Shown here: positions 5,012-22,775 of the stretch, piece by piece
How positions within the stretch are numbered: position 1 is the stretch's first letter
Layout: every line of letters starts with the position of its first letter
Source: a virus
DNA: 25,144 bases
IMG/VR virus record: IMGVR_UViG_3300031673_000443
Coordinates: 1 to 25,144 of that record
Direction: 5' to 3' (one strand)
The notes under the pieces: generated by a model
The model's input: the letters and a program-made list of their open reading frames with translations, nothing else
Database searches by the model: none
Told to the model about the DNA's origin: nothing
Position numbers and translations under genes: made by a program

Positions 5012-6091
5012 ATGTCAGTTGATGTACAACTTGCACACTTATGCCCCCACTACACGATTGAAGAACGGGTAGTGTTGGGTTCAGATCGAATGTCGTTGGC
5101 AACACGTCAACCAGTCGCTTCTAGCGGATCTGTGCAAATCACGATCAACAATGCGCACTACATCCCCTCTGGTGGTTTGTTTTCGTCAGCTAAGTTGGTG
5201 GGATCTTTCTCAGGGCCATTCAACATTCAGGCTGGGTTTACAAGTCTCCAGATCAGCACCGCGACTGAGACAAGGGTACTCAATGTCCCATCCGGGTCTA
5301 GGGTTCAGACGTCTCAGATTGTGAACGCAATTCGTGCAACCGATCCACAGACGTTTACAGTCAAGAGTGACAACGGTTATTTGCGCATCAACGAAACCAG
5401 TACGATTGGGATTCAATCTACCCTATCAATTCGAGGTGACGCCGCCAACGCTCTTGGGTTTGACAGACAACGTGGATCAAAGGGTCGCCAGATTTACCCT
5501 GGGTGGCAACTCTACAAGCGCCCAGATTCAATCACAAACTTATATCCCAGGTTCAACGAGCCAGTTAAGGCCAACCCGGTTTTCAAGGTCACATACGCGG
5601 CCCCTCCACAAAGATGCTTACGTTGTGGCGGCACTCTGATTGAAAACGATTATCGGTTTACCCCGCAAGGGTTTGTGCTTTTAATCGACAACGAGAACTT
5701 GCTGTACCAGGCATCACTCAAGATCATTTTGACTGATTTGGGGTCAAACCCCTATCATACGTGGTACGGGACGACCATACGAGGCCGCATTGGAAGTAAG
5801 GCCATCGGCGGCGTGGCTGCTGTTATCAACGAAGACGTACGGCGTGCTTTGGACAAATTCCAAACGATCCAAGAAGAGCAGGCCAAATACCAGGTGGTTA
5901 CGTTCAAGGAGCGTTTGTATCGGGTGTTATCCGTACAAACCACTGTGAGCCCCGATAATCCGTACACGTTCCTGGTTGATGTGGTCGTGCAGAACGCGGC
6001 TTCCGATCCGATAACTTTGACAATTGTTTTTACTGTGCCGGGCGTTATCTCCACTGTTAAGGGAGATGGTGTCTTGCTGTCATTGGGGTAA
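5012..6091 (+). CDS. Baseplate wedge protein with C-terminal gp25/GPW-like domain and central CxxC motif (359 aa)
   Basis: The ATG follows GGGAG at 6-nt spacing. Three parts can be seen. Residues about 60-165 resemble a small beta domain common in phage virion proteins, ending with Asn-Ala-Leu-Gly-Phe (146-150) and a Gly-Arg...Pro-Gly-Trp end. Next is Cys202-Leu-Arg-Cys205 followed by Gly-Gly, a half zinc-ribbon-like knuckle; possible partners are His9, Cys11 and His13. About residues 225-350 match the pattern of the T4 gp25 / phage W (GPW) family: a Leu-Thr-Asp strand, Pro-Tyr-His...Trp251-Tyr-Gly253, a helix of Glu/Asp-Val-Arg-Arg-Ala-Leu type, and a final run of beta strands. In T4, gp25 is a wedge component near the sheath start. 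It sits directly before the J-like gene, as expected. The usual stand-alone gp25 is about 130 aa, so this is an extended form. Family match is by eye. Confidence 0.6.
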   Translation: MSVDVQLAHLCPHYTIEERVVLGSDRMSLATRQPVASSGSVQITINNAHYIPSGGLFSSAKLVGSFSGPFNIQAGFTSLQISTATETRVLNVPSGSRVQTSQIVNAIRATDPQTFTVKSDNGYLRINETSTIGIQSTLSIRGDAANALGFDRQRGSKGRQIYPGWQLYKRPDSITNLYPRFNEPVKANPVFKVTYAAPPQRCLRCGGTLIENDYRFTPQGFVLLIDNENLLYQASLKIILTDLGSNPYHTWYGTTIRGRIGSKAIGGVAAVINEDVRRALDKFQTIQEEQAKYQVVTFKERLYRVLSVQTTVSPDNPYTFLVDVVVQNAASDPITLTIVFTVPGVISTVKGDGVLLSLG

Positions 6092-11170: not shown

Positions 11171-14100
11171 ATGGCGGGTTATGGCATAGGGTCGTGGGGA
11201 GTGGATACTTGGGGTGCTGCTGGCATTGCGCCCACAGTTACGAGCGCAGTCAGCCTCGATGGGTTCCGCATAGAAGTCACGTTTTCAGAAGATATGCAGT
11301 CGAGTGCTGCTTTTTACAGCCCATCTTCCTATTTTTTTACGCCATTCTGGGGTGGTGCACCGGTAACCACTATTTCTGTAATTGCCGGGACAATAGGCCC
11401 TCTCGGACCAAGATCTGCCGTAATCACCCATACAGGGACAACGTTTGGTGGTTTCTATCGAACGATGGTTGTGGGCCTCAAAAATGCTGGCGGGACGGCA
11501 ATAGATCCAGCAAACAACTACGCTGACATTCTGACCAGGGGCGATGAACCAACCTACACGGCGACAGCCACAGCAGGAAACAAGGTAGTCCTACAGTTCT
11601 CACAGAATATGTTGTCCGAAACAACGGTATCTCCAGGGATCGAGCAAGTATCCGCGTACAGTTTTGAACATACCCCTCCCGCGTTCCCAATTCCGTTAAC
11701 CTTGCAATCTGTTTCGCATCCGTACACCGGTGATCTTAAAAAAGTTGAACTCACTGTTCAGGGTATGACCTCGATCTGGTACGACAGCACCGTGGGTGTG
11801 GGGGATGCAATTCGTTTTGACGGCACGTACCTGCCAAGCACGAGTACTACGTTTCTTGGGGTTGAGCTTGGTTTGGGGACAACAACTGTGGTTGTAGATC
11901 ACTTGTTGTTGTCTAAAAATAGCGGCAGCATTTATGGGTGGGGGTTTATTGATACCTCCGGTAGACTCACAGGGACATCAACTGTACGGGATACTTTTGT
12001 TTTTGACGTATCAGTTGGTTCGTTTGGCCCCCCCGCTGAAGAATATGGTGTTGGTGCTTGGGGGACTAGTACTTGGGGCGCTGGGCCTCCAGGTGAGGGT
12101 CATTTAGGCACGTACTCATTTTCTGATGGGGCGACCCAAATCGATGTGCGCTTTGAGCAGGTAGGGGGTATTAAAAAAATAACTGTCCAAAGTGGCTTCT
12201 TCTATGCGCAAGTAGACGCGGATTGGGGGGCGGGGCCTACTGAACTTTGTGTGGTGCGTAACCAGCTAGCAGACACGTACACTATTGGGATGGATGGAGC
12301 GCCGCTAGTGTCTGGTTTAATAGCGGCTTTTACAGGAAGCCCTTCTATTTTGGGGGGTAATCCAGGGACACAATTTACGTTGGCCGCTGATTTTGATGTG
12401 GTCAATTTTTCGTTATCCAGTGTGGATCTAACGTCTACTGAAACGATCTTTGGGCACACTTGGAATTTTGTCCATAGTTCTGTTTCTATGTTTCTTGGCT
12501 CTGCGGTTTTGGCAAGCGACCATCTTTATACAGATCGAGGTCCATTGGTGAAGGGCTGGGGCGATGCAACCCCCGCAACCACCCAAGATGTTGCCGTTTT
12601 TGTCAACAGTTTGGCGTACACGTGGATCGATTCTGTGAATCCCTACACTGGTAAGATCACCTTTTCCATCCCGATACCGTTCATGCCGCCAGGCACCACT
12701 ACTGTAGAGGTAGATTATATTTGGTTTGCGAACCCGGTGTTCCCCTTTGCAGGGTTCAACACCGATGGTTTGGTATTCAACAAATGGGATCGGCGAGACG
12801 GGATGGCAGCATACCCCCCTGCGCACGGCGAGCAGATCCAGACACTGCCAGCATTCCCCAAGGGATATACAAGTACCTCCCGGTTCCCATTCAGCGCAAC
12901 GATGGGGCCTTGGTCAGATGGAACCCCGCAACCTCTATTAATCGGCCACCGCTATTTGGGACTTGTTCGTGAGTATTCAGCAACTTTCAACAACCCAACG
13001 ACGTTGCTCTTTAACCAGAACCCCCATTCAAGCAGAGTCCGTGGCTTTGCGCTAACGCCTCCTCCAGTATCTGAGGCGTTTGAGGGTGTGCGCGATCCGC
13101 AATTTGATGATCCCCCCTGGATTCTGGAAGGTTCAGATACAGGGGTAGCCGACGCTGTCACAGGCATCTATACCCTCAAGGATGAGTCAACCGGGACGTT
13201 TGGTACGGGCCAGGCTGCGTTCTATCAACGTGACGCCGACTTCTCCTTTCCGTCATCCGTGGTGATGGCGGCTCGATTCGAGGTTTCTGAATTCACAGTA
13301 GATGGGGTATATACCGGGATCAGCTTTGGGATGCACGACAACCGCAGGCTCTACCTGGTAGGATTATTATATGTAAACGGAGTGCGTCATGTTGGGATGC
13401 TCAAAGACCCAGGGCGCTTGCAAGAGATATCTTCGTGGGACGTGGGCCCTACAACAGCCATTGAGATCTTGAACAGCACAACGTACACGGCGCAGACCTC
13501 AGATATCCCGACTGATGTCGGTGTGGGGACGCGGTTTCAGATATTCACGGGATCACAAGCTGGGGTATATACCATCAAAACTAGGGTAGACCTCCCAAAC
13601 GGTACATCTACGGTAACTGTAGATGACACCATCAGTACTTTCCCAGCAGATCCCCAGTGGTGGGGCAATCGGTATTACTCGATCCACTACGAAATTTTGT
13701 GGAGCAGCAACCCCTCAACATATCGGATGGTTGTCGAGCCTGAGCAGGCGCTGGCCCAGTTGCTTATTGGTGGCGCAATTTCTGCCGAAGTTCTTACGTT
13801 TGACAGCGCCCCAGACTTCCCGATCCCACCTGACACGACCCTGATGTTGAACACAACCAGGGGTGGTCAGATCTTTTGGGGATCTTTAAGCCGTGAGGCC
13901 ACCAATACAAGCCTTTGGTCATTTTTCCGTTACGGGGTGCTGCCAGACCAAACAACATTGAACTCTCGTGGGCATATTGTTTCGTCTGAAATGACGGCAA
14001 CTCCTGATGACGATGCCAACAGCGAGTGGTTTGAGCCACAAGACTTCGGATATGCCGAAGTTGACAGCACTGGAAACCAGATCTTGCTGAAGAGCACATC

Positions 14101-16288: not shown

Positions 16289-16933
16289 ATGACCAAATAC
16301 AGAGAAAAAATGCCCCAGCCAAGAGAACAGTTGGCGATGGCCCTGCATTTACAAAACACAGAGAAGGCTCTGGGAATGATACCCCGTGAAGGTAAATTTA
16401 TCTTCGATATGCGGGATGCCAGATCGGGTGAACAACTTGTTTATTTTGAGAAAAAAAACATAATCACCAGGGACGCATCGATCCAGGCTGCCCGGCTGTT
16501 CAAAGATAATACAGAACCCAACTTTGGGATCTTGATGTTGGCAGTAGGCACCGGGGCCACTGGCAATCTCCTTAGCCCCGATGTGCCAGATGATCGGCAA
16601 CGCAAACTCAACGCTGAAATTGCACGCAAGACGTTCTCATCAACTTCATTTAGAGACTCTACCGGTGTGGCTGTGGCCTACCCAACCAATGTGGTTGATC
16701 TGACAACTACGTTCGGGCCGTCAGAAGCCGTTGGTGCCTTGAACGAGATGGGCCTAATCTCGCCAATCTCATCAAACCCAACGATCTTGAACCCTAACCC
16801 CAACAACTTCCCAACCTACGATGCCACGCTGGATATCACACCGTATGACATTTTGATTAACGACTCCACGTTTGGCGTCGTAAGTAAACCAGCTACAGCA
16901 AATCTTATTTTAACTTGGAGACTTACGTTCTAA
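16289..16933 (+). CDS. Small tail-fibre/appendage-type protein (214 aa)
   Basis: The ATG has a near-ideal GGAGGG five bases upstream. The protein follows a pattern I know from many phage tail-fibre-type proteins: a helical start, an Asn-Ile-Ile-Thr-x-x-(Ala/Gly) segment near residue 57, then Ala-Val-Gly-Thr-Gly-Ala-Thr-Gly (about 86-93), a Leu-Asn-Ala-Glu-Ile-Ala-Arg-Lys element (about 108-115), a beta stretch with Thr-Thr-Phe-Gly-Pro-Ser-Glu-Ala, and a Glu-Met-Gly-Leu element near residue 153. The C-terminus is beta-rich. A virion appendage or collar role is likely, though no exact family is named. Its stop overlaps the next start (TAATG), tying it to the two ART-like genes. An A8 run at 16451-16458 forms a slippery site, but the -1 frame stops within about 17 codons. 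Confidence 0.55.
   Translation: MTKYREKMPQPREQLAMALHLQNTEKALGMIPREGKFIFDMRDARSGEQLVYFEKKNIITRDASIQAARLFKDNTEPNFGILMLAVGTGATGNLLSPDVPDDRQRKLNAEIARKTFSSTSFRDSTGVAVAYPTNVVDLTTTFGPSEAVGALNEMGLISPISSNPTILNPNPNNFPTYDATLDITPYDILINDSTFGVVSKPATANLILTWRLTF
16917..16920 (+). promoter_or_regulatory. GGAG ribosome-binding element for the first ART-like gene
   Basis: GGAG lies 12 nt before the ATG at 16933, longer than ideal. The overlap with the upstream stop (TAATG) suggests that translation of this gene depends mainly on coupling. The TTG at 16915 overlaps this element and is an unlikely start. Confidence 0.35.
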
Positions 16934-18159
16934 TGCAAGTGCGTAGATCAGCGATGCGTGTGGTTTCCCGGTACCTGGAAAAAAGGGGGATAATTCAGCA
17001 CCCTCCCCGGAGGCCACAGCAGTACTTCAACAATTGGATTAAACGATTACGAAAAGTGATCCAAGAGGCCAAGAAGTTGGAGCGTCCGCTGACGAGTGGC
17101 GGCAAACAAATCACGGATGAGTTTTTCCAAGACTCGCCCCTGTGGATCGGCATAGAAGATCTCAAACGCCTTTTTACCGGTGACGATTGGTCAAAGGGTT
17201 CGTTAGACGGATTGCTCCAAAATGTGGAGGGGTTTGTTACTGAACTTGATTGGGCCAACAAGGAAGAGTCAAGTTCTTATGATCGTCGTCAGTGGTGGGG
17301 CCATCTCCAGAATTCATTGAAGTTTTTTCAAAACGATCTAAACACAGGCCATGTGAATTATGTTCTCCGAGACGTTAATGATAAGGCTTCTGAACTACGT
17401 GGGTTCGCTCAAGATCAAGAACGCTACTATGTTGAGGATGGTTTGCCCAAAGGATTTTCTGACAACCTGTTCCGTTTAGTATCCCTGATCGAACAAGCCA
17501 AGGAGATCACCCAAGAGGCCAAACCCAAACTCGATGAGCTAGTACGGCTCTACCTGACAGGGTGGGAACGAAGCGATGATGCCAGGCCGCCATCAGAGAG
17601 CATCGAAACGCTATACCATACTTCGGTTAGGGCGCGGCAACTATATTCCAGTGGGTTTAGCCCGACAGTACCTAAGATGGAGGGCCTTGGTGGATCACAA
17701 ACAGACAAGTCCGGGAAACCTGCAATCTCGTTTACAAGTGATCTATATGTTGCCAAGGAGATTATGAGGACGCTGCGTGAGGCGATCTTGGTAGCCAAGG
17801 GCCAGGTCAGGGCAGACCATATTTTGGATTGGGCCAAACGGGCTGGCATACGTGATCGTGTGCTGGATACCTTTAGAGGCATCAAGGGCGATCTTGATCT
17901 GAAGCGGAAAGATCACGTCATGGAGCTATATCGTATCTACTTGACGTATTACGCCGAGAAGGGGACACGATACAACCCTCTGTTCTTTGGTGATATGGAA
18001 GCCCTCATGCAGAAATTCAAAGGTATGAGTCCACGTGATGTTGGTGTTTTGGTGTGTTCCGTGAATATGACTGACCCCAACATAAGCTACCTCCCGTCCA
18101 TGCACGAATACCGAGTTGCCCCCAAAAACGTAGTATCGATTGACAGGATCATCTCATGA
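16933..18159 (+). CDS. Putative ADP-ribosyltransferase-like virion-region protein 1 (408 aa)
   Basis: Start chosen at the ATG overlapping the upstream stop. Residues 9-16 read Arg-Val-Val-Ser-Arg-Tyr-Leu-Glu, a peptide repeated at the C-terminus of the next gene's product. About residues 25-215 are helical and charged. From residue 227 the sequence fits the ART fold: Leu-Tyr-His229-Thr-Ser on the first strand, a helix, Gly-Phe, then Ile-Ser-Phe267-Thr268-Ser-Asp followed by a helix starting Val-Ala-Lys, and a late Met-His-Glu392-Tyr-Arg-Val strand. This is compatible with an H-(Y/F)-E type site, with a helical insertion of about 100 residues between the second and third elements. ARTs transfer ADP-ribose from NAD+ to protein, RNA or DNA targets. 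No signal peptide or membrane segment is present. Alternatives are an inactive ART fold or a related RNA 2'-phosphotransferase fold. Family call is by motif reading only. Confidence 0.5.
   Translation: MQVRRSAMRVVSRYLEKRGIIQHPPRRPQQYFNNWIKRLRKVIQEAKKLERPLTSGGKQITDEFFQDSPLWIGIEDLKRLFTGDDWSKGSLDGLLQNVEGFVTELDWANKEESSSYDRRQWWGHLQNSLKFFQNDLNTGHVNYVLRDVNDKASELRGFAQDQERYYVEDGLPKGFSDNLFRLVSLIEQAKEITQEAKPKLDELVRLYLTGWERSDDARPPSESIETLYHTSVRARQLYSSGFSPTVPKMEGLGGSQTDKSGKPAISFTSDLYVAKEIMRTLREAILVAKGQVRADHILDWAKRAGIRDRVLDTFRGIKGDLDLKRKDHVMELYRIYLTYYAEKGTRYNPLFFGDMEALMQKFKGMSPRDVGVLVCSVNMTDPNISYLPSMHEYRVAPKNVVSIDRIIS
16957..16980 (+). other. Shared peptide R-V-V-S-R-Y-L-E (N-terminal copy)
   Basis: Codes for residues 9-16 of ART-like protein 1. 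The same peptide with His and Gln substitutions closes ART-like protein 2 (19179-19202). A location or packaging tag is inferred. Confidence 0.5.
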
Positions 18160-19226
18160 AGGTCGGATCGGCAAAATATCGCGATAAGCTGGAGGCCCTC
18201 AAAAAGATTTACCACGACCAAGATCTTTGGGTTCTTGTCAACCCTAAGTCCATGAGTACCCCACGTTGGCGCTCCCTTGAGGGCCTTGCAGGAGATCCTG
18301 AAGCCGAAGAGTACGTCAACAGTTTGTACGCCCAGGTACAGAGTCGGATGCCCGAAGCGTTGAAGACACGCGAAAAAGACCACCAAGAGGAAACTGAGCG
18401 CCTTAAGTACGAGGGGCAAGGGGTAGCAATAGATTCGTATGACCCGCCCCCTCTTGAGGCTCTTAGAGGCAAGAAAGTGTGGCTCTACCACGGTACATCA
18501 ACGTCGTTTGACGAAGCCATCAAGAAGAATGGTTTAGTGCCTGGTAAGGCAGGATCGAACTATGGTTGGCGCAAAGACTACATCTTTTTAACAGCCCGAT
18601 CACACGGGAGCCACAGTTCTGCACAATTTTATGCCAAGCAGGCTGTAGCAAAGCATGGCGGTGATTCGGTTATTTATCGTGTTCTAGTAGAAGGTAATCA
18701 GTTGGAGCCTGATCCAGACGATGCAGACATTTACGCAGGCAGGTTTCAATACATTGTACGTAAAGTAAGACCCGCTCAAATAAAAGAGCGCTTGAAGGTA
18801 GGAACCATGCAACGATCGGCTGTGTTGACTTCTTGTTTTAGGGATATCAACTCTTTGTACTTGGATGTGCGGGATGTGATCAAGAAAAAACCCTCCGTTC
18901 TCCAGGGTCCTGACTACGACCAAGCAATGCTTTGGGCGGTGGAGATGGAACGTCTTTCAAACCAGTTGGTTTCAAAAGTGGGGTACGCGCTACGGCAACA
19001 GGCAGAGGCGTATCGTGATTTTGCCCAACAAGTTATTTTTGGGATTGACCACGGTGATCTGAAAAGCCTCACAAAGCTAACCGTCAAAGTCAACCCAGAG
19101 ATTCGCCGGTACTATAATCTTCCCGATGAAAGTAGCGGAGAGTCCGATGAGTTCTCAAAATTTGGTCGTTTAGTGCAGCGTGTCGTCAGCAGACATTTGC
19201 AGGAATCAGAAGGACAGCGAAAGTAA
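18156..19226 (+). CDS. Putative ADP-ribosyltransferase-like virion-region protein 2 (356 aa)
   Basis: The ATG overlaps the upstream stop as ATGA, with AGGA (18145-18148) 7 nt before it. Residues 1-100 are helical and charged. The ART-like core spans about 108-215: Leu-Tyr-His112-Gly-Thr-Ser, a helix, Asn-Gly-Leu-Val-Pro, then Asp-Tyr-Ile-Phe-Leu-Thr146, a helix with Ala-Gln-Phe-Tyr-Ala, a Val-Ile-Tyr-Arg-Val-Leu-Val strand, Glu-Pro-Asp-Pro-Asp-Asp, and Arg-Phe-Gln198-Tyr-Ile-Val. The Tyr-His-Gly-Thr and Phe-Leu-Thr pair is typical of PARP-like ARTs and of KptA-type folds. The third catalytic position appears to be Gln198, not Glu, so classic Glu-dependent chemistry is uncertain. Residues 218-356 are helical and end with Arg342-Val-Val-Ser-Arg-His-Leu-Gln349. 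It closes the three-gene unit and is followed by the longest gap in the window. Confidence 0.55.
   Translation: MKVGSAKYRDKLEALKKIYHDQDLWVLVNPKSMSTPRWRSLEGLAGDPEAEEYVNSLYAQVQSRMPEALKTREKDHQEETERLKYEGQGVAIDSYDPPPLEALRGKKVWLYHGTSTSFDEAIKKNGLVPGKAGSNYGWRKDYIFLTARSHGSHSSAQFYAKQAVAKHGGDSVIYRVLVEGNQLEPDPDDADIYAGRFQYIVRKVRPAQIKERLKVGTMQRSAVLTSCFRDINSLYLDVRDVIKKKPSVLQGPDYDQAMLWAVEMERLSNQLVSKVGYALRQQAEAYRDFAQQVIFGIDHGDLKSLTKLTVKVNPEIRRYYNLPDESSGESDEFSKFGRLVQRVVSRHLQESEGQRK
19179..19202 (+). other. Shared peptide R-V-V-S-R-H-L-Q (C-terminal copy)
   Basis: Codes for residues 342-349 of 356 in ART-like protein 2. It matches the N-terminal peptide of ART-like protein 1 at 6 of 8 positions, with two conservative changes. 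Confidence 0.5.
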
Positions 19227-19340: not shown

Positions 19341-22300
19341 ATGTCAGTTCAAGACCGCGACAAACACTATTCGGCACTAACGGGAACGACCCCTAACACG
19401 GTGTCTCGTAACACTTTAGTAGGCGATCGGTCGTACGGAGGTGTGGTTTACCAATCAGGCAAACCAATACTCGACAGCGAATTAAATGCCCTCCAGGATG
19501 TTTTTGGCCAAACCAGATCTCTGTTGCAGCGTCAGCCTTCCGGGTTCCTACTCAGCCAACAGCGACCTTCTGTTTTTGATGACTTCACTTTTTATTCGGT
19601 TGGTAGCCCATCCTTCTTGGCAAACGCCTTCCATATGGCCCGGAAAGAGGCTTTGGTAGCGGGGTTCCCCTTGGTTGTAGAGTTCACAGGGACAGACACT
19701 GTGCTGGACAACATTGTCACCCTCCAAGCCCCACAGATCTACGATGGGACACCAAACACGATCAAGCGTACAGACTTTGTGTTCCTTGAAGTTTGGCAGG
19801 AACTGCTTGCACCGTCACCGCACGCTACAGGAACCATCCAAGTATCCAATCCTAGTGATGGGGATACCGTAACAATAGACGGCACCCCTCTCACAGCCAA
19901 GTTAGTCCCTGTAGCCCCTACTGATTTTTTGATTGGGGCAACAGACGCCGACACGGCAACCAACCTGGCAGCTTGTATCAACACAAATATCGTGACCGTT
20001 GCTGGCAATGCTGGCGGGACGGCTACGGTAACTGTCACCGCTCAAGTGCCGGGTGCGGCTGGTAATTTGATTGCGCTAGCAACATCCAATCCGGTTGCCT
20101 TTGTATTGTCGGGGGCAACCTTGGCAGGCGGTGCAAGTCGTCCTGGGAAACCCGCTGCGGATAAGCTCTATCGCCACGGAAATACACAATCCCATATGAA
20201 CACGTGGCTTGATGACGACATAATGGACCCCCTTCTGCTCAGGGAAACAGCCCAGCGCATCCAGATCCAATACCGCATCCGAACTACGGGAACAGCCGAG
20301 GGAGTCAACTTCAAAGATCACCCAGATGGGTTCTCGAACGTAACAAACCCGATCTATGCCCAGGGCGGTCAGGCTGCCCCTGTGGGATCATACCCGTTTG
20401 TTCCTGCAAACAACGCAGCTACTTGGATGAGCAGTAGCGCCCCGAACTACGGGGTGGTTGATGGGGGGTTGTATATAGCGGGAGACGGGTCTTCGGCGGC
20501 ATCGACAGCTTTGGGAACCCTGGATGGTTTTGTGTATGCCATCCCCATTTCCTTTGTGTTTCGACATAATGATTGTTCTGATCCCACTGCCGCGATCAAG
20601 GGCTTTGACCCGCGCCTCAACACCAACGGCGGCCCCATGTCTACACACGTAGGGTACACTGGTGTTCTAGGGGCTATTCCCGCTGGATTATCTGATAGAC
20701 CCGACAAGGGATATGCCGACGAAGTTGTTGCTGCAAACTTGTTAGATCTACGAAAACACACATCCATGACCGGGGTGGACTTGTCTGCGGAGCACCAGTA
20801 CCAGATCCAAAGCCTACTTGATGGGCAAACCAGAACATGGGCCATCGATACGGCTTCCAAACAAGAGCTTGGCGGTGGGTCTGGTGATGTGTCGCCGTTA
20901 CCGTTGGTGTGTAATGAGATTGGCCGAGAGGCGGCACTTGGCGGAAATCCTCCAGCGTCTGGTAACACATCACGTGGGGAAACCATCCGTAATTTTGATC
21001 ATTTTGCCAGGCGGTTTGGCGATCAGCCTGTGGTGGAAAAGGTCGTTCTGGCTTTTTATCCGGGAGACAGACCTACAGCGATTGCTCAGGGCGGTCCTGT
21101 GGCTCCTGGCCTAGAGAACCTTGGCAAGTACGTGGTCAAGGCCGAAGATCCCCCAGGAACCCCCATAACAACAGGGACTTGGTATGAAAACGACGAATTG
21201 CACTTGGACTTATCACAGTTGGACGCCACCACACAGGGAACACTTTTTCAAGGCGGCCCCTGGGCGTCTAGTGGGCTTGGTTTACCAGCAACCGATGTGT
21301 TTACGTTTCTCCCGGCAGGTACTACCATCTCCGATGTCTTGTCGCTTTACCATGACGATGGGAATTGGGATCACATCATAGATCAGCGTGTCGAGCCCAA
21401 GCTGGTCACAGGTATCGGCACATCGCATTTGGTAATCCAGCTAGATGTCAATCAGGAAAGTGTCACAGGTGGCTTGGATGTGGCTCCGTATATTTTGGTG
21501 GGCCAGGCTGTGCCGCCAGCGCCGCCAGATACTGCATCACCACGCAGAATATTTGTGGAGCTTGAAGTCACGTACCCCTTGGGCGCTGGGCTAACCGATA
21601 CTCCAGATGAAGAGGTTGTCCCAGATACGACCGTCGCGGCTTGGAAACACGGCCCCTTGATTGAAAACGATGCGACACAGAAACCGTTGGACTCCAATGA
21701 TATCGTGCTTTACGGATATCGAGAGGGATTCCGAGAAGTCACCAATCAATATGTGGCCGGTGATCGTAACACCCCCGCGAGTCCAGTTGGTACAACAATT
21801 ATTGAACAGATTGTCAGCCGAGATAGGCAGACTTTGCATTTCCCACGGCGCGTCTATGGCAGTGCCACACACGGCATCACCATTGAAGATGTTGAAACGG
21901 CTACCGCGAAAACACCTGATCTAGTCAACACAGAGTTCGGAAGTAGCTCTCGAATGGTCAAGATCATCGGTGCTGAGTTTTTGTCTGGGATGGGGCAAAC
22001 CTTGGCTGAGATTACCTATTGGGCCCAAGACCCAATCCCCAATTACGGCCCAGCGGGTGGTGGCTATCAGATTGCCAACTATTTCCGAACCAACGCCCCT
22101 CAAACTGCCGGGGTTAAGGAAGGGAACATCATCAACACGGCAGATGGTACGATCCCTACGATCTTGCGTGTTGATCCGTTGAGTGCCGCAGATCACATTT
22201 GGACTGGCCAGGTTGGGATGGGTTCTGTGGAACTGCCTTTCCCATATATTGCACCATTAGATCAGATCCCTGTGAATGACGGTACGCCGCCAGATCCCAG

Positions 22301-22775
22301 TTTCATCGCAGGGACGACCTTTGAGTGGTTCTTTGCCGCGATTGCTGAAACCTCCGTCGATGACTTTGAGGCGCAGACAGGTTTGTTGTCTTTGCATAGT
22401 TTTGTGCAAATTGATAAAACAACTCGTTTGTCCCTTGGTGGGGCCGCTGCGGGCCAATTCCCAGTCAAGGATGCTGAATTTCGAGCCTATTATCCATATA
22501 CAGATGAGAACGCCTATCGGCCAACAGCGGCAGCGCAGACGCTGTCAGGCCCTGTCAGGCATAAGACGTTTACCTCGATGCTTGCTAGGGTAGCTGAGGA
22601 AGCCGTTGGGACTCAAGGTGGGATGTTGTTCAGGGAAGGCGAGATTGTGTTGGTCGTATTCAACAACCTATACGTGGTCGATGACGAGAACATTGTTCGC
22701 TTTATTGACACAGGCAACCGGACTTGCGCGGGTGTTTACAAAACCCGTGGCATATTGATGGCATCGGGAGGTTGA
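19341..22775 (+). CDS. Large virion structural protein, tail or baseplate appendage (1144 aa)
   Basis: The start ATG has AGGA at 7-nt spacing. Near residues 30-55 the sequence shows Gly-Gly-Val-Val-Tyr-Gln-Ser-Gly-Lys-Pro-Ile-Leu-Asp-Ser-Glu-Leu-Asn-Ala, a pattern I associate with phage virion proteins of the type Gly-Val-x-x-Gln-x-Gly-x-Pro-x-Leu-Asp-x-Glu-Leu-Asn. Residues about 162-267 form an inserted module: Gly-Asp-Thr-Val-Thr-Ile-Asp-Gly, Thr-Asn-Leu-Ala-Ala-Cys-Ile-Asn, Gly-Ala-Ala-Gly-Asn and Leu-Ala-Gly-Gly, common in tail proteins. Around nt 20692-20748 is Arg-Pro-Asp-Lys-Gly-Tyr-Ala-Asp-Glu-Val-Val followed by Leu-Leu-Asp-Leu-Arg-Lys, another recurrent virion motif. The rest is beta-rich with no enzyme motif. 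It likely belongs to the tail or its appendages and leads the last block of the window. Confidence 0.65.
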   Translation: MSVQDRDKHYSALTGTTPNTVSRNTLVGDRSYGGVVYQSGKPILDSELNALQDVFGQTRSLLQRQPSGFLLSQQRPSVFDDFTFYSVGSPSFLANAFHMARKEALVAGFPLVVEFTGTDTVLDNIVTLQAPQIYDGTPNTIKRTDFVFLEVWQELLAPSPHATGTIQVSNPSDGDTVTIDGTPLTAKLVPVAPTDFLIGATDADTATNLAACINTNIVTVAGNAGGTATVTVTAQVPGAAGNLIALATSNPVAFVLSGATLAGGASRPGKPAADKLYRHGNTQSHMNTWLDDDIMDPLLLRETAQRIQIQYRIRTTGTAEGVNFKDHPDGFSNVTNPIYAQGGQAAPVGSYPFVPANNAATWMSSSAPNYGVVDGGLYIAGDGSSAASTALGTLDGFVYAIPISFVFRHNDCSDPTAAIKGFDPRLNTNGGPMSTHVGYTGVLGAIPAGLSDRPDKGYADEVVAANLLDLRKHTSMTGVDLSAEHQYQIQSLLDGQTRTWAIDTASKQELGGGSGDVSPLPLVCNEIGREAALGGNPPASGNTSRGETIRNFDHFARRFGDQPVVEKVVLAFYPGDRPTAIAQGGPVAPGLENLGKYVVKAEDPPGTPITTGTWYENDELHLDLSQLDATTQGTLFQGGPWASSGLGLPATDVFTFLPAGTTISDVLSLYHDDGNWDHIIDQRVEPKLVTGIGTSHLVIQLDVNQESVTGGLDVAPYILVGQAVPPAPPDTASPRRIFVELEVTYPLGAGLTDTPDEEVVPDTTVAAWKHGPLIENDATQKPLDSNDIVLYGYREGFREVTNQYVAGDRNTPASPVGTTIIEQIVSRDRQTLHFPRRVYGSATHGITIEDVETATAKTPDLVNTEFGSSSRMVKIIGAEFLSGMGQTLAEITYWAQDPIPNYGPAGGGYQIANYFRTNAPQTAGVKEGNIINTADGTIPTILRVDPLSAADHIWTGQVGMGSVELPFPYIAPLDQIPVNDGTPPDPSFIAGTTFEWFFAAIAETSVDDFEAQTGLLSLHSFVQIDKTTRLSLGGAAAGQFPVKDAEFRAYYPYTDENAYRPTAAAQTLSGPVRHKTFTSMLARVAEEAVGTQGGMLFREGEIVLVVFNNLYVVDDENIVRFIDTGNRTCAGVYKTRGILMASGG

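What the first reader, a model, noticed from the sequence alone, without database searches (positions are those of the whole stretch)
16933..19226. Two adjacent ADP-ribosyltransferase-like proteins inside a virion structural operon
Both products carry a Tyr-His-(Gly)-Thr/Ser strand, a Gly-Leu/Phe turn, and a Phe-(Leu)-Thr strand followed by an Ala-containing helix, the core signature of PARP-like/ART folds. Protein 1 adds a Glu-Tyr-Arg-Val strand near its end; protein 2 has Gln at the matching place. They sit among tail genes with no gap between them. Established knowledge: T4 packages the ART Alt in its head and uses it to modify host RNA polymerase. The inference is that this phage carries one or two ART-like effectors in its particle, perhaps as an active and a divergent or inactive pair.
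Basis: partly seen in the sequence, partly recalled or inferred. Interest (0 to 1): 0.75.

Follow-up and report, generated by a model that had tools for sequence, protein, structure and literature searches.

The report
Tagged ADP-ribosyltransferase pair in huge phage
A very large uncultured phage carries two adjacent enzymes of the ADP-ribosyltransferase type among its particle-building genes; both end in a short peptide also found on the ends of unrelated effector-like proteins in related giant phages, which suggests an address label for loading injected proteins into the particle.

Summary
Window 16933-18159 (P1, 408 aa) and 18156-19226 (P2, 356 aa) are overlapping genes in a tail/baseplate operon of a huge phage whose nearest annotated relative is LR745208 (485 kb). 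P2 contains an ADP-ribosyltransferase (ART) domain: its family matches KptA by profile, and its model's ten best Foldseek hits are all Tpt1/KptA. It is not KptA, and Gln198 replaces the usual catalytic acid in all three closest members. P1 belongs to a family named in no library searched; ten relatives conserve His229, Ser266, Thr268 and Glu392 in ART order, but structure search did not confirm its fold. Location alone proves little: the slot is empty in most relatives, or holds homing-endonuclease-like or PhoH genes. Stronger: most P1 relatives lie beside terminase, portal, capsid or baseplate genes, and P1's N-terminus and P2's C-terminus share the peptide RVVSR[YH]L. In four related huge-phage contigs this motif is about 60-fold above shuffled proteins and sits at protein ends in 21 of 24 cases, on an ART-PolyVal protein, HExxH proteins, 2H phosphoesterases and a P1 homologue. 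I infer a cargo tag for particle loading and injection. Packaging and activity are untested.

The parts
16933..18159 (+). P1, 408 aa: helical N-terminal part (1-222) and C-terminal ART-like domain
17599..18156 (+). P1 ART-like domain (residues 223-408): H229, S266/T268, E392 invariant in 11 homologues
16957..16977 (+). P1 N-terminal tag RVVSRYL (residues 9-15)
18156..19226 (+). P2, 356 aa: N-terminal helical part, KptA/PARP-like ART domain, C-terminal helical part ending in the tag
18471..18797 (+). P2 ART domain (residues about 106-214): H112, F144, T146, Q198
19179..19199 (+). P2 C-terminal tag RVVSRHL (residues 342-348)
16289..16933 (+). Upstream flank of the slot: phrog_5417 protein, homologue of phage G gp190
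19341..22775 (+). Downstream flank of the slot: 1144-aa protein with homologues in LR745208, phage G (gp211) and Tunturi_5 (there called tail fiber)

Best explanation
P1 and P2 are two NAD+-using ADP-ribosyltransferase-type effectors made together with the structural genes, loaded into the phage particle through a short terminal peptide ([RK]V[AV]xR[YFH]L; N-terminal on P1, C-terminal on P2), and delivered into the host at infection, where they modify host macromolecules (working like T4 Alt or the ARTs of polyvalent proteins). Shown here: the P2 ART domain, the conserved ART-like P1 family, the shared tag and its terminal bias in related genomes, and the morphogenesis contexts. Inferred: late expression, packaging, injection, catalysis and target.
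For: P2 family profile: best PDB sequence hits are KptA (E 2.4e-4), then DarT1 (0.095), with PARP12 also listed (1.0). hhalign to E. coli KptA: probability 96%, E 3.9e-9. Foldseek top 10 all Tpt1/KptA, best E 1.8e-4. P1: H, S/T and E invariant in 11 homologues; strands at 224-231, 265-268, 371-378, 392-395 and 400-407; in-register match to the P2 family, E 2.8e-4, probability 41%. P1-type genes lie after a major head protein (phrog_2522, E 1.4e-50), between terminase and portal, upstream of terminase, and near baseplate wedge genes. The P2-type domain in L106 is in a protein with a polyvalent InPase domain (E 2.7e-37) downstream of a portal gene. Tag: G048 plus LR745208, 15 core matches against about 0.17 in shuffles, 12 of 15 terminal, p 9e-8; held-out G035 5 of 5 and G010 4 of 4 terminal. 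LR745208's tagged ART is Pfam ART-PolyVal, E 9e-12. P1 homologues in L103, L105 and L114 start with T4-CTS-like peptides ending [LI]xE; in L103 five neighbouring genes share that start.
Against: No proteomics or activity data. The slot also takes homing-endonuclease-like and PhoH genes, so position alone is weak evidence. P1's fold is not confirmed by Foldseek, and no Pfam ART family hits P1 or its relatives. The tag's link with HExxH proteins (p 8e-9) did not replicate in the held-out contigs. P1's G025 homologue has no recognisable tag, and G025 has no core matches.
Confidence: 0.6

Rival explanations
1. Both are ART-type effectors or anti-defence proteins made in the infected cell and acting there (like T4 ModA/ModB or a DarT-like enzyme); they sit among structural genes only because that slot is an insertion hotspot, and they never enter the particle.
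For: In relatives the slot is mostly empty or holds homing-endonuclease-like, PhoH or other non-structural genes. Small phage ARTs of the P2 type also occur outside structural clusters, e.g. phage G gp53, gp251 and Vibrio phage proteins.
Against: P1 homologues recur next to different head, packaging or baseplate genes; the nearest P2 relative is in a polyvalent-style protein beside a portal gene; a shared terminal tag is not explained.
Confidence: 0.25
2. They are ART-type enzymes, but the RVxxR[YFH]L tag has another destination: for example a phage-made compartment, the membrane, or a protease or chaperone adaptor.
For: The tag occurs on varied proteins at either end, and no packaging experiment exists. 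Its pattern (basic, hydrophobic, Arg-aromatic-Leu) suits an amphipathic helix of unknown partner (inference).
Against: Tagged proteins include types independently proposed to be head-packaged (ART-PolyVal, zincin-like, 2H phosphoesterases; PMC5512222, PMC9503650), and T4-CTS-like starts appear on P1 homologues elsewhere.
Confidence: 0.12
3. P1 is not an ART but an unrelated fold whose LYH, ISFT and EYR motifs resemble one by chance; P2 alone is an ART.
For: No ART hit in Pfam, PHROGs, NCBIfam or PDB by sequence, and none by Foldseek; the profile match to LR745208's ART failed.
Against: His, Ser/Thr and Glu are invariant in ART order across 11 divergent sequences with matching strand order; in-register alignment with the P2 family.
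Confidence: 0.13

Closest known systems
Phage T4 Alt (head-packaged, injected ART)
   Same: Proposed role: ART made with late proteins, packaged and injected. Some P1 homologues (L103, L105, L114) have T4-CTS-like N-termini.
   Different: P1/P2 have His at the strand-1 position where R-S-E enzymes have Arg; no Alt-family hit; the window's tag differs from a CTS and can be C-terminal.
ARTs of phage polyvalent proteins (ART-PolyVal PF18760, Tox-ART-HYD2; Iyer 2017, PMC5512222)
   Same: The P2-type domain in L106 sits in a polyvalent-style protein near a portal gene; LR745208's tagged ART is ART-PolyVal.
   Different: P1/P2 do not match PF18760; they are separate proteins with a terminal tag, not domains of one long chain; third active-site residue is Glu (P1) or Gln (P2), not the Asp described.
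KptA/Tpt1 RNA 2'-phosphotransferase
   Same: P2's ART core aligns with KptA by profile and structure.
   Different: NCBIfam KptA score 13.7 bits against a 233 cut-off; only the ART part aligns; different flanking regions.
Small phage PARP-like proteins (phrog_2110, phrog_13493, phrog_11974; phage G gp53, gp251)
   Same: Same ART core as P2; phage G's members share an N-terminal peptide of their own (MKRL[IV]...).
   Different: The P2 branch conserves Gln in the GR[FYH]Q[YF] motif, and window P2 has a helical C-terminal part ending in the tag.

Membership tests
ADP-ribosyltransferase superfamily (P2) | ART-type split beta-sandwich fold | tested here: met
   Foldseek top 10 all Tpt1/KptA, prob 1.00, best E 1.8e-4; hhalign to KptA 96%
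ADP-ribosyltransferase superfamily (P2) | Strand-1 His; aromatic or Ser/Thr residue in strand 2; acidic or variant residue in the last core strand | tested here: met
   H112, F144, Q198 (variant third residue), kept in L106 and L119
ADP-ribosyltransferase superfamily (P1) | ART fold | tested here: inconclusive
   Strand order fits; Foldseek dominated by the helical part
ADP-ribosyltransferase superfamily (P1) | Conserved His / Ser-Thr (or Tyr) / Glu residues in order | tested here: met
   H229, S266/T268, E392 invariant in 11 sequences
PARP (PF00644) | Score above Pfam gathering cut-off | tested here: not met
   No hit for P1 or P2; P2 relatives below cut-off
KptA/Tpt1 (P2) | NCBIfam equivalog cut-off | tested here: not met
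   13.7 bits against 233
T4 Alt/Mod (R-S-E) ARTs | Catalytic Arg in strand 1 | tested here: not met
   His at that position in all members
ART-PolyVal (PF18760) | Score above cut-off | tested here: not met
   No hit for P1/P2; met by LR745208's tagged ART only
Head-packaged injected effector | Present in the particle and ejected into the host | not testable with these tools
   Needs proteomics; indirect evidence
ART enzyme | NAD+-dependent transfer of ADP-ribose | not testable with these tools
   Needs a biochemical assay

The most novel reading that the evidence does not exclude
Huge phages of this lineage load a set of unrelated effector proteins (ARTs, zincin-like proteins, 2H phosphoesterases, a DnaJ-domain protein) into the particle using one short portable peptide that works at either terminus; other lineages use their own peptides (MKRL[IV] in phage G, LRRRxYLAE in L103). 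The injected cargo would then be recognisable from sequence alone.
Probability: 0.45. Interest if true: 0.82.

Novelty: new variant of a known kind. Interest (0 to 1): 0.62.

Why it matters
Head-packaged ARTs are an established idea: PMC9503650 places about 44% of phage ARTs in packaging-like contexts. New here are (1) an ART-like family, P1, named in none of the libraries searched, (2) a P2 branch with conserved Gln in place of the catalytic acid, and (3) a short terminal peptide shared by unrelated effector-like proteins in huge phages, with its terminal bias replicated in two contigs not used to find it. If the peptide is a loading signal, injected cargo of huge phages could be listed from genomes alone, and it could be compared with the T4 capsid targeting sequence as a route for placing proteins in large capsids.

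Tried and rejected
Single-protein pattern searches of viral contigs and tblastn against phages found no P1/P2 homologue; homologues came through whole-contig searches and alignment-based scans. Two genome-contig scans found no P1 relative. hhalign of the P1 family with LR745208's ART failed. P2 as KptA: rejected on cut-off. P2 as an inactive duplicate of P1: rejected because Gln is conserved and the families differ. Position in the operon as evidence of particle location: down-weighted after the slot survey. Tag similarity within the two window proteins alone is modest (26 of 5000 shuffles of the two ends reach it; not significant over full lengths); the case rests on the other genomes. HExxH enrichment among tagged proteins did not replicate in held-out contigs. 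GC content of P1/P2 (0.487, 0.486) lies within the range of neighbouring genes, so no sign of recent acquisition. Text searches of two reviews and of the paper library found no description of such a terminal tag; the library lacks most subscription papers.

Full report
What is there. The window is a 25,144-base virus record with one long + strand operon. A baseplate protein (5012-6091, phrog_2669, E 4.6e-5) and a phrog_5417 protein (16289-16933, E 7.4e-21) are recognisable. The phrog_5417 protein and the 1144-aa protein at 19341-22775 have homologues in LR745208 (uncultured, 485 kb; 48% and 41% identity), Bacillus phage G (gp190, gp211) and Tunturiibacter phage Tunturi_5. The window is therefore a fragment of a huge phage of that broad group. 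P1 (16933-18159) and P2 (18156-19226) overlap by 4 bases.

The slot. Eighty relatives of the 1144-aa gene were fetched. In most of them the gap between the two flanking genes is about 0-80 bases. In others it holds genes that look like homing endonucleases (HNH-like, or with the HYCRSTLEANFARIL...WVELKG pattern; read by eye, not searched), PIN-PhoH genes, or other proteins. The ART pair is accessory cargo in an insertion-prone position, so position alone does not show a structural role.

P2. Sequence libraries give only weak direct hits: phrog_2110 E 0.0018, KptA E 0.041. The phage proteins it resembles form a web of PARP/KptA-like families, including phage G gp53 and gp251 and Vibrio phage nt-1 ORF157. 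The closest relative, L106, is 45% identical over the domain. It is part of a protein of over 1000 aa that also has the polyvalent InPase domain and lies just downstream of portal and head-morphogenesis-like genes. With the family alignment, PDB sequence hits are led by KptA and then DarT1, with PARP12 further down; hhalign to E. coli KptA gives 96%; and the AF2 model's ten best Foldseek matches are all Tpt1/KptA. Overall model confidence is low (mean pLDDT 60), but most of the ART region is at 73-89. P2 is not KptA by score. The motif GR[FYH]Q[YF] is shared by window P2, L106 and L119, so Gln198 at the third active-site position is a conserved variant.

P1. No library names P1. A homologue was found in contig G025 (E 9.8e-21), then more by alignment-based scans. 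Across 11 domains, 21 columns are invariant, among them LYH229, IS266xT268xD and E392. Secondary structure of the model has strands holding H229, S266 and E392 in the expected order, with most of the ART region at pLDDT 72-93. hhalign with the P2 family aligns LYH with LYH and ISFT with IFLT, but weakly (probability 41%, E 2.8e-4). Foldseek with the whole model did not return a recognised ART. I put P1 being an ART at about 0.85.

Where P1 relatives lie. G025: right after a major head protein (phrog_2522, E 1.4e-50) and downstream of a head-maturation-protease-like gene. L101: between terminase and portal. L104: upstream of terminase. L105: near two baseplate wedge genes. L112: fused to an HExxH domain. 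L113 is an exception without obvious structural neighbours. Contig G051 (543 kb) holds both a P1-type and a P2-type ART.

The terminal tag. P1 begins MQVRRSAMRVVSRYLEKRG and P2 ends GRLVQRVVSRHLQESEGQRK. Contig G048 (407 kb, with a P1 homologue starting MNLSARVAQRYL) has the motif mostly at protein ends. For G048 plus LR745208 the core motif [RK]V[AV]xR[YFH]L occurs 15 times against about 0.17 in shuffled proteins; 12 are within the first 25 or last 15 residues (2.4 expected, p 9e-8). The motif was first seen in the window and G048, so the fair test is the two contigs examined afterwards with the same pattern: G035, 5 of 5 terminal (p 3.5e-4; two of the five are the two ends of one protein) and G010, 4 of 4 (p 3e-3). 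Tagged proteins include a P1 homologue, an ART-PolyVal protein (E 9e-12), HExxH proteins, 2H phosphoesterases, a C39-peptidase-like protein, a DnaJ-domain protein and a SWIM-finger protein; the match in the LR745208 2H phosphoesterase is internal and only to the relaxed pattern. Over-representation of HExxH proteins in the first two genomes (p 8e-9) was not seen in the held-out ones. ORFs were called mechanically in 20-kb pieces, so counts are approximate. G025 lacks core matches.

Other lineages seem to have their own peptides. In the first 400 kb of phage G, six ORFs start with an MKRL[IV]-like peptide, and all three proteins with an HGT[ST] ART motif are among them (p 9e-7; noticed first, then counted). 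In L103, the P1 homologue and five neighbours have MxLRxRxYLAE-like starts, and the L105 and L114 homologues start MRIREVITEA and MRAYEFLNET, resembling the T4 capsid targeting sequence ending in [LI]xE (the T4 consensus is from general knowledge).

Interpretation. The best-supported reading is that both proteins are ART-type effectors loaded into the particle and injected. Iyer et al. (PMC5512222, PMC9503650) already proposed this for phage ARTs fused to MuF or polyvalent chains or encoded near head genes. What differs here is separate effectors joined to the particle by a short shared peptide at either end. That is inference: neither packaging nor catalysis has been shown. The main rivals are intracellular ARTs in an insertion slot, and a tag with another destination.

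Verdict. The ART claim stands for P2 and is likely for P1; the active/inactive pair idea is not supported; the particle claim is plausible and now testable through the tag.

Noticed in passing
L007, L008, L037, L041, L047, L058, L018, L027, L028, L042, L045 (slot between phrog_5417 and 1144-aa homologues): In relatives the same slot holds genes that look like homing endonucleases (HNH-like or HYCRSTLEANFARIL type), several overlapping the upstream stop by about 18 bases: an insertion hotspot.
   Followed up: partly
L002:20727-22073, L040, L041, L048, L049: A PIN-PhoH protein occupies the same slot in LR745208 and close relatives.
   Followed up: no
Phage G JN638751 ORFs starting near 28218, 35181, 73330, 178671 (- strand), 244460, 245985: Six ORFs share an N-terminal MKRL[IV]-like peptide; all three with an HGT[ST] ART motif are among them.
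   Followed up: partly
L103:9443-14136: Run of short genes whose products have MxLRxRx[YF][LI]xE starts, including the P1 homologue and a second ART-like protein (11812-12264).
   Followed up: partly
L097:15673-18906 (- strand): 1077-aa protein near the G025 head genes with HELGH and HELTH motifs and an ART-like YHATPWDRVPSILRKGL segment; no PHROG match.
   Followed up: no
L112:2853-5324: P1-type ART domain fused to an HExxH (zincin-like) domain in one 823-aa protein.
   Followed up: no
L214:8841-10136 (G035): 431-aa protein with the RVxxR[YF]L tag at both ends; no Pfam match.
   Followed up: no
L156:7195-8688 and L212:2955-3593: 2H phosphoesterases with weak similarity to anti-CBASS Acb1 and a tag-like motif, in two different huge phages.
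   Followed up: no
L101:11126-12433: Apparent DNA methyltransferase gene (DPPYNTGNKF motif) between the P1 homologue and the portal gene.
   Followed up: no
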